64,000 nt of DNA from contig NC_092034.1 in NCBI RefSeq assembly GCF_042242105.1, positions 1,584,644 through 1,648,643 of the forward strand. The letters are read 5' to 3'. How positions within the stretch are numbered: the stretch's first letter is position 1; the number at the start of each line of letters is the position of its first letter. Under the pieces are notes generated by a model. It was not told the origin of the DNA and made no database searches. It was given only the letters and a program-made list of their open reading frames with translations. The translations under genes were made by a program, and so were the position numbers. Shown here in pieces: positions 29,601 to 63,810 of the stretch. The DNA is from Pempheris klunzingeri (lineage: Eukaryota > Chordata > Actinopteri > Acropomatiformes > Pempheridae).

Positions 29601-32600
29601 TATCATTCTAACCTTTATCCAAAATATTTGCTTTTTCATTTGTGGATCAGTTTTACATTTAATTTACTTGTTGTTCATTCATGTTAATTAGTATCTACGT
29701 GTGATAATCGATGGGGGGGTTTGGTCTGTGTTCCTCTGCAGAAGGTGGACGTCACCAGCAGAGCCGTGTTGGACATCATGACCAAAACCACAGAGTACCT
29801 GCAGCCGAATCCAGGTAGGAAACACACCACCGCTACGGCGCCGCAGCATGTCGCCTAACACCACATGACTGTTCACCGTCTGACCTGTCGCCCTGCAGCG
29901 TCCAGAGCCAGGCTCAGTATGATCAACACCATGTCCAAAATCCGCGGGCAGGACAAGGGACCCGGTTACCCGCAGAACGAGACGGTCCTGGGCGACGCCA
30001 TGTTGAAGTTTGGACGGGAGCTCGGGGAGGAGTCCAGCTTCGGTAAGCGGGAACCAGGAGGGTCGAGTAATGAAACACACGATCGCTCAGAGGCTCCTGG
30101 TCTTTTACTTCTGATGCTTTTAGCACATTTCGCTAATACTTGTGTATTTTTAGGACTAAAGGGAGGACAGGATAAGTGGGATTTTGAATGCTGAAGTAAG
30201 AGAGGCAACAAAAACGCTGCTTTGAATACAAATTTCTTGAATTCAGCAGGAGGCAGCTTGTTGAATTCAAATCAGGCTCAGCCAAGGTCAAGTTCTGTTT
30301 TCAGACATTTATTCAGTGAGACTTGTGAGTCACCAGAAACCAGCTATGAGCTACAGAAGACGAAGAAGAGAGCGGACGTCAAAGTGCCCTTTCTACCTGT
30401 TCTAACTCTACCCCGTTGCTCTTCTTTCTCTCTGTTTCCCCTCCATCCCTCCCTTCCAGGTGTGGCGCTGCTTGATGCCGGTGAGGCGATGAAGGAGCTC
30501 GGGGAGGTGAAGGACGCTCTGGACATGGAGGTCAAACAGAACTTCATCGACCCGCTGCAGAACCTCCACGACAAAGACCTCAAAGAGATACAGGTGAATT
30601 AGTCACGTTAATGATACCGTTAATCCTTAAAGGAGGGCTCCAATATTTTTAAATCCGGGCACTCTTAGCCCAGTTGATCGCCACAGTGTGCAGCCATGAA
30701 ACGGGCTGTAACATGATCCTTTGGGACAACTGCACCTGATCACAGTAGGTCCACTAAAAGAGCTTGTTTGATCCACTGACAGGCTCAGAGTGTTATTCTA
30801 AGTGTGTGACAGCATCATGGAAAGGATCCCTACAGAGAGAGACCTGGAAGATCCTTTTGGTTTAACCACAAACAGCCGTTATATCGCTCTCTGCACACAC
30901 ACCAGACTACATTCATTAAACAGCGATTTTGTCTCGTAGAACATTGGAGATACAGCTGCCTCGATTGGTTAGTTTATGTTGTTGTGTGTAAAACAAACAT
31001 AGTATTGGATCCAGATTAACACCAAAGTCACATAATAAAACTAACAAACTAACCGATTGGGGAAGCAGTAAACCAGCAACTCCCATGTTCTGTGCGTTAA
31101 AATTACTGTTTTTGTCAATGGAGTCTGGTGTCATTACAGCCTGTTTCTCGACTGCTGGCTGAGGCGATCTACTGGACCAATTCCTAAACTTTTTGTACCT
31201 ACCAGTCATTTGAACCCAAGATATGTAAAAATAGAGGTTTAAAAATGCCAAAGTACCCCAGCTTATAAATTTGAGAAATGGAAGCAGTAAAGTGCCATAG
31301 ACATAAATTAGACATCATAATGAATTGTAACAGTGATTTATATTCTGTGTCACTCTGTGTTGTCTCTGCACTGCAGCACCATTTAAAGAAGATGGAGGGC
31401 CGCCGTCTGGACTTCGACTACAAGAAGAAGCGTCAGGGGAAAGTCCAGGACGATGAGATCAAACAGGCGCTGGAGAAGTTCGACGAGAGCAAAGAGATCG
31501 CAGAGCAGAGCATGTTCAACCTGCTGGAGAGCGACGTAAGGACGGTCGATTGTTTTCATAATCGATTCATCTGCCGATCGTCGTCGATGAAATGACTCGT
31601 TTTGTCTGATTAACAGCCCAAAAAACAAAGATATACAGTTAATTCTAATGTAAGAGGAGGAAATCAAACAAAATCTAACTTTCAAGAAGCTAGAATCTTT
31701 TTTTTTTTTTTTTAAATCTTTGTTTTAAAAATGACTATAAACGATTGGTAGCTACAGATTGATCGACTGGTCGTTGCAGCTTTAATGTACCTGTTGAATT
31801 TCAGGTAGTTTGTCTGTGTTGACAGTGAGTGACGATGGTGGAAACATCCAGGAAGACGAAGTCATTATGAAAAAACCAGTGACCTAACAGTTAAAATACA
31901 GAAACAGAGAATGAGTCAGATTAAGTGAAACTGCAGAAACACAATAAATCTGTTTTTAAAATAATCTCATAATAAAAACACTTTGATCTACAGGGGAAAA
32001 GACAAATGTTCAGCCTTCATTCCTGCGTAATTGTTGATGTTGACGTGGCTCTTCTGTTGCTACGGTTACGCACGCAGTCGTTCAATTGAACTCCGAGGAA
32101 ATGACAAAGGCCGGCGGTGCCTGTGCCGTGCTGTGCCGTGCTGTGCCGAGCCAGGCCCAGCATGGCTACAGGACTGGGGGGAAAACATATGTGTGTGTGT
32201 GTGTGCTGCAGATAGAGCAGGTGAGCCAGCTGGCAGCGTTGGTTCAAGCTCAGTTGGAATATCACAGCCGCGCTGCCGAAATCCTCCAGCAGCTCTCCAG
32301 CAAGATGGAGGACAGGTATCGATCTCTGCGCCTACACCAGATAAAGATAAACCAACAAAAATAGACTGGTGTGGTTGGATAAACCTCCTTTTTTTGTTTG
32401 TAACTTTGTCTGGACTTCATCCAGGATAAAAGAAGTGTCCAGTAAACCCAGGAAGGAGTACACTGCTAAACCCCGAATGACCCTGGAGCTGCTGCCACCC
32501 AGCGAGAGCCACAACGGGGGGATTCACTCCGCCAAATCACCCGGAAGATCACCAGGTAGAGGCTGGAAGTGTGTGAGCGAACATGTGCTTTTGGTGTGAA

Positions 32601-62443: not shown

Positions 62444-63810
62444 TCAGGGTTTGACGTCGACCACGCAGCTGCCTTTTATGTCCCTGAAGGCGCTGCAGTC
62501 GAAGTCGGCCAGCACGGTCTTCAGGCCGGCCCTGTAGGGGGTCGTAATGATGGTCAGCTTCAGCGTGGTGTTCGGCTGCATCTCCATCGTGTTGCTGATG
62601 ACACACATACAGTCAGATTAACTCATTTTGGTGAATTTTAGTATGTTTAAATTCCCAAAGTTAGAAAATGGGAATGTTGTATCACTACGACAATTTTGTA
62701 AAGTTCAGTGTGAATCATGTCACATCGGTTTGATACACAGGGTCCAGTTATGCTGCTAAGAGTGACTCCTGTACTTTTAAATGTGGGCCCTGTTTCTACA
62801 TACCCTGGTGTGTGAGTGACTGGTAGGTAGTAAAAGTGTTGGAACTGGTCCAGTAGATCACCTCAGCCAGCAGACACCAAACGGGCTGCAATGGCTGCAA
62901 CGTGATCCTTTGGGACAACTGCACCTGATCACAGTAGGTCCACTAAAAGAGCTTGTTTGATCCACTGACAGGCTCAGAGTGTTATTCTAAGTGTGTGACA
63001 GCATCATGGAAAGGATCCCTACAGAGAGAGACCTGGAAGATCCTTTTGGACACCAAAGTATGTGAAAATGGGGCCCAGGTTCAAAAACACCAAAATTATC
63101 CCTTAACACCACTTTCACTTCTATTCATGACCACATGATTGGTATTTAAAGGAATGTGTTGGATGAGAAGATTGATATTTCTATCTGGGCTGGAACCAGG
63201 AGGCGATTAGCTCAGCATGAGGACTTGAATGTGGGGAAACCAGCAGCCTTGCTATGTCCAAAGGTCATAATTATGGCAGCTACAGCACGCCATGTCGTAT
63301 TTGTTTAATCCATACACAAACAATGTGCTGGAACTATTTCTAAAATCACAAACTGTCACTTTTACATGTGTGATTTTGTACAGATTAAACAAACGAGGTA
63401 CAAAGTGTTGATTACTGAACTTTGGACAGAGCCAGGCTCACCGCTTAGCCTTGTTTCCGATCTTTACGGTAAGCTAGGCTAACTTCATAGTCACTGCACA
63501 GACATGAGCGCTGTGTGTTTCCCCAAATGCTGTTTCTTTTTAGCATCAAGTCATCAATATTACGCTGTAGCAGCTTGGCCTCTCAGTTGCAGGTGATGTC
63601 ATGATACCATTTTCAGAATATATTTCACTATATCACTCATGGATTGTAGGTTTCCACCAGGTAACCACATGCTGACCTTTCTACGTAGTCGGATCTGAAA
63701 AGACCACTTCCGATGACAGTCAGGTTGCAGTTTCTCAGCGTCTCATTGAGCGGGTTTGTGAATTCCACCTCCAAAGTCATTGCACAGTTCACACGGGCCA
63801 CACCCACAAC
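62444..63810 (-). CDS. transglutaminase, last two exons (gene continues beyond the window)
   Basis: Two minus-strand exons, 63810-63677 and 62594-62444, join in phase 2 and end in TGA. They encode about 94 C-terminal residues. The first reads ARVNCAMTLEVEFTNPLNET and NCNLTVIGSGL. The second reads TLKLTIITTPYRAGLKTVL and DFDCSAFRDIKGS. This is the layout of the last beta-barrel of the transglutaminase family (F(T)NPL, then G.K.L...F....L...G). The catalytic core lies upstream, outside the window, so activity and paralogue (TGM1-, TGM2- or TGM5-like) cannot be judged. The acceptor of the first exon follows a GTGTGTGTGTTT run. The intervening intron holds foldback-element copy F. Confidence 0.8.
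62755..63110 (+). mobile_element. foldback/MITE-like element, copy F (no palindromic half)
   Basis: The left end (CCTGTACTTTTAAATGTGGG...GGAACTGGTCCAGTAGATCA) leads into the identical core (62909-63050). It then goes straight to a right end GTGAAAATGGGGCCCAGGTT, the complement of the left-end type. The palindromic half present in the other copies is absent. Located in the transglutaminase intron. Confidence 0.7.
63150..63485 (-). repeat. diverged copy of the TTAGC/GCTAAG repeat
   Basis: GTTGGATGAGAAGATTGATA (63160) and CGATCTTTACGGTAAGCTAG (63458) resemble, in reverse, the blocks at 37540-38080. Confidence 0.4.

What the first reader, a model, noticed from the sequence alone, without database searches (positions are those of the whole stretch)
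30727..63050. About 130 bp identical in four copies of one element, nearly so in a fifth
The segment from TGCACCTGATCACAGTAGGT to AGATCCTTTTGG reads the same, base for base, at about 30730, 42786, 44850 and 62909. On the minus strand at about 61670-61556 it differs by one base near its end. Outside this core the same elements are clearly diverged, with different left ends, arms and indels. A uniformly ageing transposon would not show this. Options are gene conversion among local copies, very recent core acquisition, or selection on the core, for example as a small-RNA source or protein-binding site. The core holds complementary AAAGGATC and GATCCTTT that can pair.
Basis: partly seen in the sequence, partly recalled or inferred. 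Interest (0 to 1): 0.72.

Follow-up and report, generated by a model that had tools for sequence, protein, structure and literature searches.

The report
Chromosome-end patch overwriting old repeats
A 130-base stretch inside an old family of fish mobile DNA is letter-identical in over a thousand scattered copies, apparently because near the chromosome ends it keeps being copied over older, decayed relatives, which would make it a striking natural case of scattered DNA copies being rewritten to match each other.

Summary
The 130-bp core is identical at four window sites and its last 98 bases at a fifth. In this 646-Mb genome 1279 copies are identical over all 130 bases; 2911 places match a 35-bp seed with at most 3 mismatches.

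The core lies in an old non-coding transposon-like element with inverted arms. In the 34 copies compared (30 from C1, 4 from the window) a young patch around the core ends at varying points. In 26 of 34 an old arm of the family follows on the right. Three of four copies read from other chromosome ends also have an old left arm beside the patch. In 14 interior copies the core itself is old and diverged.

Two rare young variants with complete lists lie within 2.83 Mb of a chromosome end in 40 of 40 placed cases; the ancestral form does so in 6 of 43 listed cases.

Best explanation: ectopic gene conversion, or repair by copying, overwrites resident old elements near chromosome ends. Conversion between transposon copies is known; the scale and the restriction to chromosome ends are the new part.

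The parts
30704..30920 (+). Copy 1: young patch (98.6% to the young reference) with the identical core at 30731-30860
30921..31290 (+). Copy 1: diverged inner arms and outer right arm of the old element
42756..42970 (+). Copy 2: young patch (pieces 42756-42931 at 99.4% and 42930-42970 at 100%) with the identical core at 42786-42915
42971..43188 (+). Copy 2: diverged inner arms
44848..45047 (+). Copy 3: young patch (97.5%) with the identical core at 44848-44977; the left side joins a truncated outer arm
45309..45375 (-). Copy 3: diverged, old-type core in the right arm of the same element
   Evidence: core model 14-80, E 1.3e-7
62804..63049 (+). Copy 4: young patch, 246 of 246 bases equal to the young reference, with the identical core at 62920-63049
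61495..61671 (-). Copy 5: young patch lacking the first 32 bases of the core; core part 61671-61574
44348..44459 (+). Diverged inner-arm fragment of the same family, no core
61294..61379 (+). Diverged inner-arm fragment of the same family, part of copy 5's other arm

Best explanation
The core belongs to an old family of short non-coding transposon-like elements with inverted arms. Near chromosome ends, one young version of the core and the adjoining arms has been copied over the matching part of resident old copies. The likely route is ectopic (non-allelic) gene conversion: a break in an old copy is repaired by copying another copy, over a tract of variable length that most often covers the core. 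Shown: identical core in more than a thousand copies; a young patch of variable extent; diverged old arms of the same family beyond it in most copies read; young variants only near chromosome ends in the two complete lists; interior copies read are old in the core too. Inferred: that the copying is recombinational repair, that it is meiotic, and that it follows the high recombination reported near teleost chromosome ends. Weakly supported: that GC-biased conversion helped the young version win.
For: 1279 identical 130-mers, reversed control 0. Of 34 copies compared, 26 have an identical core, 5 one difference, and 3 are cut by a patch end inside the core, while the last 60 bases of the inner right arm differ by 0.22 among 22 of them. 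Patch ends range from -182 to -4 on the left and +74 to the +245 limit of the reference on the right. 26 of 34 run on as an old arm on the right. L050, L049 and L047 have an old outer arm in the right order left of the patch, 68%, 71% and 59% identical to the young arm. L033 has an old-type first part and a young remainder within one core; L034 has an old core in one arm and a young-type core in the other. No near-identical right arms among the held copies: best partner 77-94% over 80 bases or more, 19 copies with a partner. 14 interior copies: core differs by 0.17 among themselves. 40 of 40 placed young variants within 2.83 Mb of an end against 6 of 43 for the ancestral form within 3 Mb. Crossovers and breaks rise towards chromosome ends in other teleosts (PMC5982825, PMC11703093; passages seen).
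Against: At 8 of 34 copies the patch reaches the left end of the reference (-182), next to apparently unrelated DNA, as a fresh insertion would. Eight of 34 copies show no old arm for 40 bases past the right patch end. Some junctions are not in register: L028 and L007 skip part of the arm, and L014 joins at a shared short word. L048 has no clear old left arm. No sister species, reads, polymorphism or linkage map was available, so no conversion event was seen directly. The genome-wide test that right arms are private got no answer.
Confidence: 0.72

Rival explanations
1. A recent burst of transposition by a young subfamily that inserts or survives near chromosome ends; arms differ because the source copies were chimeras or because new copies picked up old arms while being copied.
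For: At 8 of 34 copies the patch reaches the left end of the element, next to apparently unrelated DNA; young copies are numerous and little diverged. A mixture of some new insertion and much rewriting is possible.
Against: Old arms continue past the patch in 26 of 34 copies and differ from copy to copy; L050, L049 and L047 have old outer arms left of the patch; patch ends vary on both sides.
Confidence: 0.15
2. The rewriting is templated not by another chromosomal copy but by RNA-derived cDNA or extrachromosomal DNA of the young version, patched into breaks.
For: Some patches end at unrelated DNA or at short shared words (L014, L017, L029, window copy 5); cDNA-templated conversion is described for yeast Ty and Tf2 elements (PMC6598467 section 4, read).
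Against: In-register switches need homology on the copied side and are also expected of chromosomal templates; no transcript or small-RNA data are on hand.
Confidence: 0.07
3. Purifying selection keeps the core as a binding site or small-RNA source.
For: The core is the most constant part of the copies that were picked by a core seed.
Against: Diverged cores exist in interior copies and in the other arm of window copy 3; the constant zone ends at different points in different copies; selection on more than a thousand scattered copies is implausible.
Confidence: 0.04
4. Assembly or polishing error made the cores alike.
For: Reads were not available, so it cannot be excluded directly.
Against: Patch ends differ between copies, strongly diverged arms sit directly beside the patch, and interior copies read are untouched; a polisher would not confine itself to chromosome ends.
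Confidence: 0.02

Closest known systems
Non-allelic gene conversion among ISX Helitron copies of Drosophila miranda (PMC4384637; abstract and passages seen)
   Same: A derived short haplotype spreads across transposon insertions by conversion while the insertions stay in place.
   Different: There it is a two-base haplotype at 77 sites on one chromosome with selection for a binding site. Here a patch of about 100 to more than 400 bases has at least 1279 copies identical over 130 bases, near the ends of many chromosomes, with no known function.
Gene conversion among primate Alu elements (PMC8230782, one passage of the abstract seen; reviewed in PMC6598467 section 4)
   Same: Partly converted copies that are mosaics of an old and a young element; old copies take on a young identity without new insertion.
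   Different: The Alu paper's abstract reports 69 partial cases. Here most of the copies read near chromosome ends look converted, always over one centre because they were picked by it, and young forms are confined to chromosome ends.
MITE-type non-autonomous DNA transposons with TTAA or TA targets
   Same: Inverted ends, hundreds of bases, no tRNA or Rfam match, many copies.
   Different: Superfamily not assigned: a matching pair of ends between TTAA words was seen clearly at one copy (L022), and the terminal AGGG is, from recall, unlike typical piggyBac ends.

Membership tests
Non-allelic gene conversion among transposon copies | Copies that are mosaics of old and young sequence, switching at homologous positions | tested here: met
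   Old arm beyond the right patch end in 26 of 34; old left arms in order at L047, L049, L050, not clear at L048; L033 and L034
Non-allelic gene conversion among transposon copies | Part of the element is much less diverged than the rest of the same copies | tested here: met
   Core: 26 of 34 identical; inner right arm 0.22 mean difference among 22. Copies were picked by an exact 35-bp core seed
Non-allelic gene conversion among transposon copies | The old insertion predates the young sequence at the same site (orthologue or population data) | not testable with these tools
   The genome has no relatives in the tool
Non-allelic gene conversion among transposon copies | Homogenised copies lie where recombination is high | tested here: inconclusive
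   Young variants 40 of 40 near chromosome ends; no recombination map of this species was available
GC-biased gene conversion | Excess of AT-to-GC changes in the spreading version | tested here: inconclusive
   Core 8 against 2, control 52 against 68, p 0.04; wider region 24 against 9, p 0.003, with less certain alignment
TTAA or TA MITE | Inverted ends with a duplicated target word | tested here: inconclusive
   Clear at L022 only; other TTAA pairs may be internal CCTTTAA words
SINE | Descent from a tRNA or other known small RNA | tested here: not met
   No tRNA and no Rfam match in the window (ARAGORN and gathering thresholds, which could miss diverged relics)
Satellite DNA | Head-to-tail arrays | tested here: not met
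   Listed copies are dispersed on both strands (first 100 of 1279); none of the 10 tandem-repeat rows of the window covers the core (score 300 or more)

The most novel reading that the evidence does not exclude
A chromosome-end gene-conversion drive: a short non-coding sequence that multiplies mainly by overwriting resident relatives where recombination is intense, not by transposing, in successive waves (the end-biased TTTTAGCCAC form, 41 of 45 listed places within 3 Mb of an end, would be an earlier or intermediate wave), possibly at one preferred end of many chromosomes.
Probability: 0.3. Interest if true: 0.85.

Novelty: new variant of a known kind. Interest (0 to 1): 0.62.

Why it matters
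If right, thousands of marked copies record where ectopic copying happens in a vertebrate genome, with readable tract ends and interior copies as a built-in control. Tract length, bias and the chromosome-end effect would become directly measurable. It also warns that the apparent age of part of a transposon copy can be reset, so dating copies by divergence can mislead near chromosome ends.

Tried and rejected
Local conversion within the window: rejected, because the same core is genome-wide.

Strand bias: the run of + copies on C1 is a listing effect, since one search shows minus copies in the same stretch; dropped. The same effect means that the capped listings (first 100 of 2911 and of 1279) do not prove that C1's interior is empty. 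The case for chromosome ends rests on the complete lists.

One end per chromosome: 11 of 12 chromosomes with two or more of the 40 listed young variants have all of them at one end (counts; chance 5e-6 if independent). But C1 has exact copies at both ends (49 and 14 of the 63 listed), and neighbours may share a variant. A lead only.

The DNA-mode search with the core found 0 because very common words are skipped; it shows nothing. Viral contigs and genome contigs gave 0 loci. Sequence strings in the paper library gave 0 papers; one search also gave 0 papers.

Not done: genome-wide counts of other tiles of the young sequence (planned, never sent), and the genome-wide private-arm test (sent from then on, never answered; one search is a small substitute on held copies). 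The hairpin was not folded (one search failed).

Rows dropped: of the 100 places listed (117 in all), 12 with other middle letters were left out, and one GTGTTA place was counted with the TTTTA form. The place on unplaced C25 was left out. C21's length was assumed to be 21.5 Mb. In one search only copies with an arm end reaching the model end were used (22). That script then stopped with an error, and its core figures included one copy out of register (L021); one search replaced them. One search printed L020's sequence under L021. The patch ends used were set by hand.

Full report
WHAT WAS CLAIMED AND CHECKED. This is right. The core is letter-identical at 30731-30860, 42786-42915, 44848-44977 and 62920-63049; the fifth copy (minus, 61671-61574) has the last 98 of the 130 bases, all identical. 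Chance expectation for the leading 20-mer with up to 3 mismatches is 0.01 matches. Copy 1 against copies 2 and 3, core included, is 78% and 80% identical over 448 and 421 alignment columns, with many indels.

WHERE IT IS. The window is positions 1,584,644-1,648,643 of contig C23 (18.65 Mb) in a 646-Mb genome of 439 contigs. C24 has 14.9 Mb and C25 0.44 Mb, so I take C1-C24 as chromosomes. The genes look like a teleost's (recalled, from BAR, LRR, Endonuclease_NS and Ig matches). No tool names the species.

WHAT IT IS. The core lies in a short element with inverted outer arms and a second inverted pair of inner arms. Several copies start with TTAAAGG, and one (L022) has AGGGTAATT...AATTACCCT between TTAA words. 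The window has no tRNA and no Rfam match. I did not look for a transposase.

GENOME-WIDE COUNT. A 35-bp seed of the core with at most 3 mismatches has 2911 matches; the reversed control has 0. The full 130-mer has 1279 identical copies, control 0. Copies with another base at one core position, all else in a 33-bp pattern equal, number 15. If about nine tenths of the seed matches span the full core, as in the 34 copies compared, mean divergence is about 0.6%; this is rough.

THE PATCH. Thirty loci from C1 (0.2-0.88 Mb, picked by an exact seed) and four window copies were compared. The young stretch spans at most -182 to at least +245 relative to the seed start (the limits of my reference), and its ends vary on both sides: left -182 to -4, right +74 to +245. 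Twenty-six of 34 cores are identical, five have one difference (in L007 at its very edge), and three are cut by a patch end inside the core. The last 60 bases of the inner right arm differ by 0.22 on average among 22 copies. In 26 of 34 the right flank runs on more than 40 bases past the patch end as an old arm of the family; in L007 and L028 part of the arm is skipped; in 8 of 34 no such arm was found. Of the 19 held copies whose right arm has any partner over 80 bases or more, the best partner is 77-94% identical. So the same copies carry a young middle and mostly private old arms. Against this reading, in 8 of 34 copies the patch runs to the left end of the reference, next to apparently unrelated DNA, as a fresh insertion would.

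COPIES ON OTHER CHROMOSOMES. L033 (C5, 1.89 Mb) has old-type letters in the first part of its core and young ones after it; L034 (C17, 0.5 Mb from the end) has an old core in its left arm and a young-type core, with a 10-base gap and some mismatches, in its right arm. Four copies were picked: L050 (C18), L049 (C9) and L047 (C6) have old outer arms in the right order left of the patch, 69 of 102, 61 of 86 and 42 of 71 bases equal to the young arm; L048 (C19) has no clear old left arm. These in-register switches are the main evidence for copying over resident elements.

INTERIOR COPIES. An old-core pattern has 117 places, 100 of them listed. Of the listed, the TTTTTGCCAC form (43) lies within 3 Mb of an end in 6 cases (23% of chromosome length lies there; p 0.20); the TTTTAGCCAC form (45) does so in 41. 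Fourteen TTTTT-form copies at least 4 Mb from an end were read, two over 600 bases and twelve over 300. Their cores (112 columns, including the 28-bp search pattern) differ by 0.17 among themselves and by 0.19 from the young core. L035 (C9, 10.3 Mb) shares more young letters than the others and may resemble the source; not pursued.

CHROMOSOME ENDS. Two rare young variants gave complete lists: 15 places and 26 places, 25 on chromosomes. All 40 chromosomal places lie within 2.83 Mb of an end, against 23% expected (p 3e-26); against the ancestral form p 2e-17. These p-values treat places as independent, which neighbours sharing a variant may not be.

MECHANISM. Best fit: non-allelic gene conversion or repair by copying, with patches of about 100 to more than 400 bases. 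Male stickleback crossovers are concentrated at chromosome ends (PMC5982825), and break hotspots in trout rise towards them, an effect its authors infer to be independent of PRDM9 (PMC11703093; passages of both seen). The location therefore fits meiotic recombination, but no map of this species was available. The young core has 8 AT-to-GC and 2 GC-to-AT differences from the old majority letters, against 52 and 68 among old copies (p 0.04), a weak hint of GC-biased conversion. Junctions into unrelated DNA or at a short shared word (L014, L017, L029, window copy 5) suggest that some events ended by microhomology joining, or that the old element was already truncated. Why the core is the centre is not known, and the seed favours it. 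Inverted arms that break easily are a guess.

WHAT IS KNOWN. Conversion between transposon copies is described for Alu and for ISX Helitrons, where a derived two-base haplotype is fixed at 30% of insertions and polymorphic at another 41% (PMC6598467 section 4; PMC4384637 abstract and passages). My library searches on conversion, homogenisation and repeats at chromosome ends listed no paper whose title or opening of abstract describes this case; only listings were seen except for the papers named, and only open-licence papers are held. I call it a new variant of a known kind.

LIMITS. One genome, no relatives, no reads, no population data. Loci were chosen by seed, and 30 of the 34 main copies come from one stretch of C1. 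The private-arm search did not complete and the tile counts were not sent.

Noticed in passing
window 15376-17006: Tandem array of about 32 copies of a 50-bp unit (102-bp higher period).
   Followed up: no
window 12466-13621: Tandem array of about 31 copies of a 36-bp unit, 95% alike.
   Followed up: no
window 52006-52332: 57-bp tandem repeat (5.8 copies) inside the long open frame 50601-52346 whose start matches Endonuclease_NS.
   Followed up: no
L018:1854-2026: A second young outer arm (173 bp, 98%) in inverted orientation in the right half of the same element, so both arms can carry young sequence.
   Followed up: partly
L035 (C9, 10.26 Mb): Interior copy whose core shares more of the young letters than the other 13 interior copies read; possibly near the source of the young version.
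   Followed up: no
G000, 40 placed young variants: On 11 of 12 chromosomes with two or more listed young variants all lie at one end only, although C1 has exact copies at both ends.
   Followed up: partly
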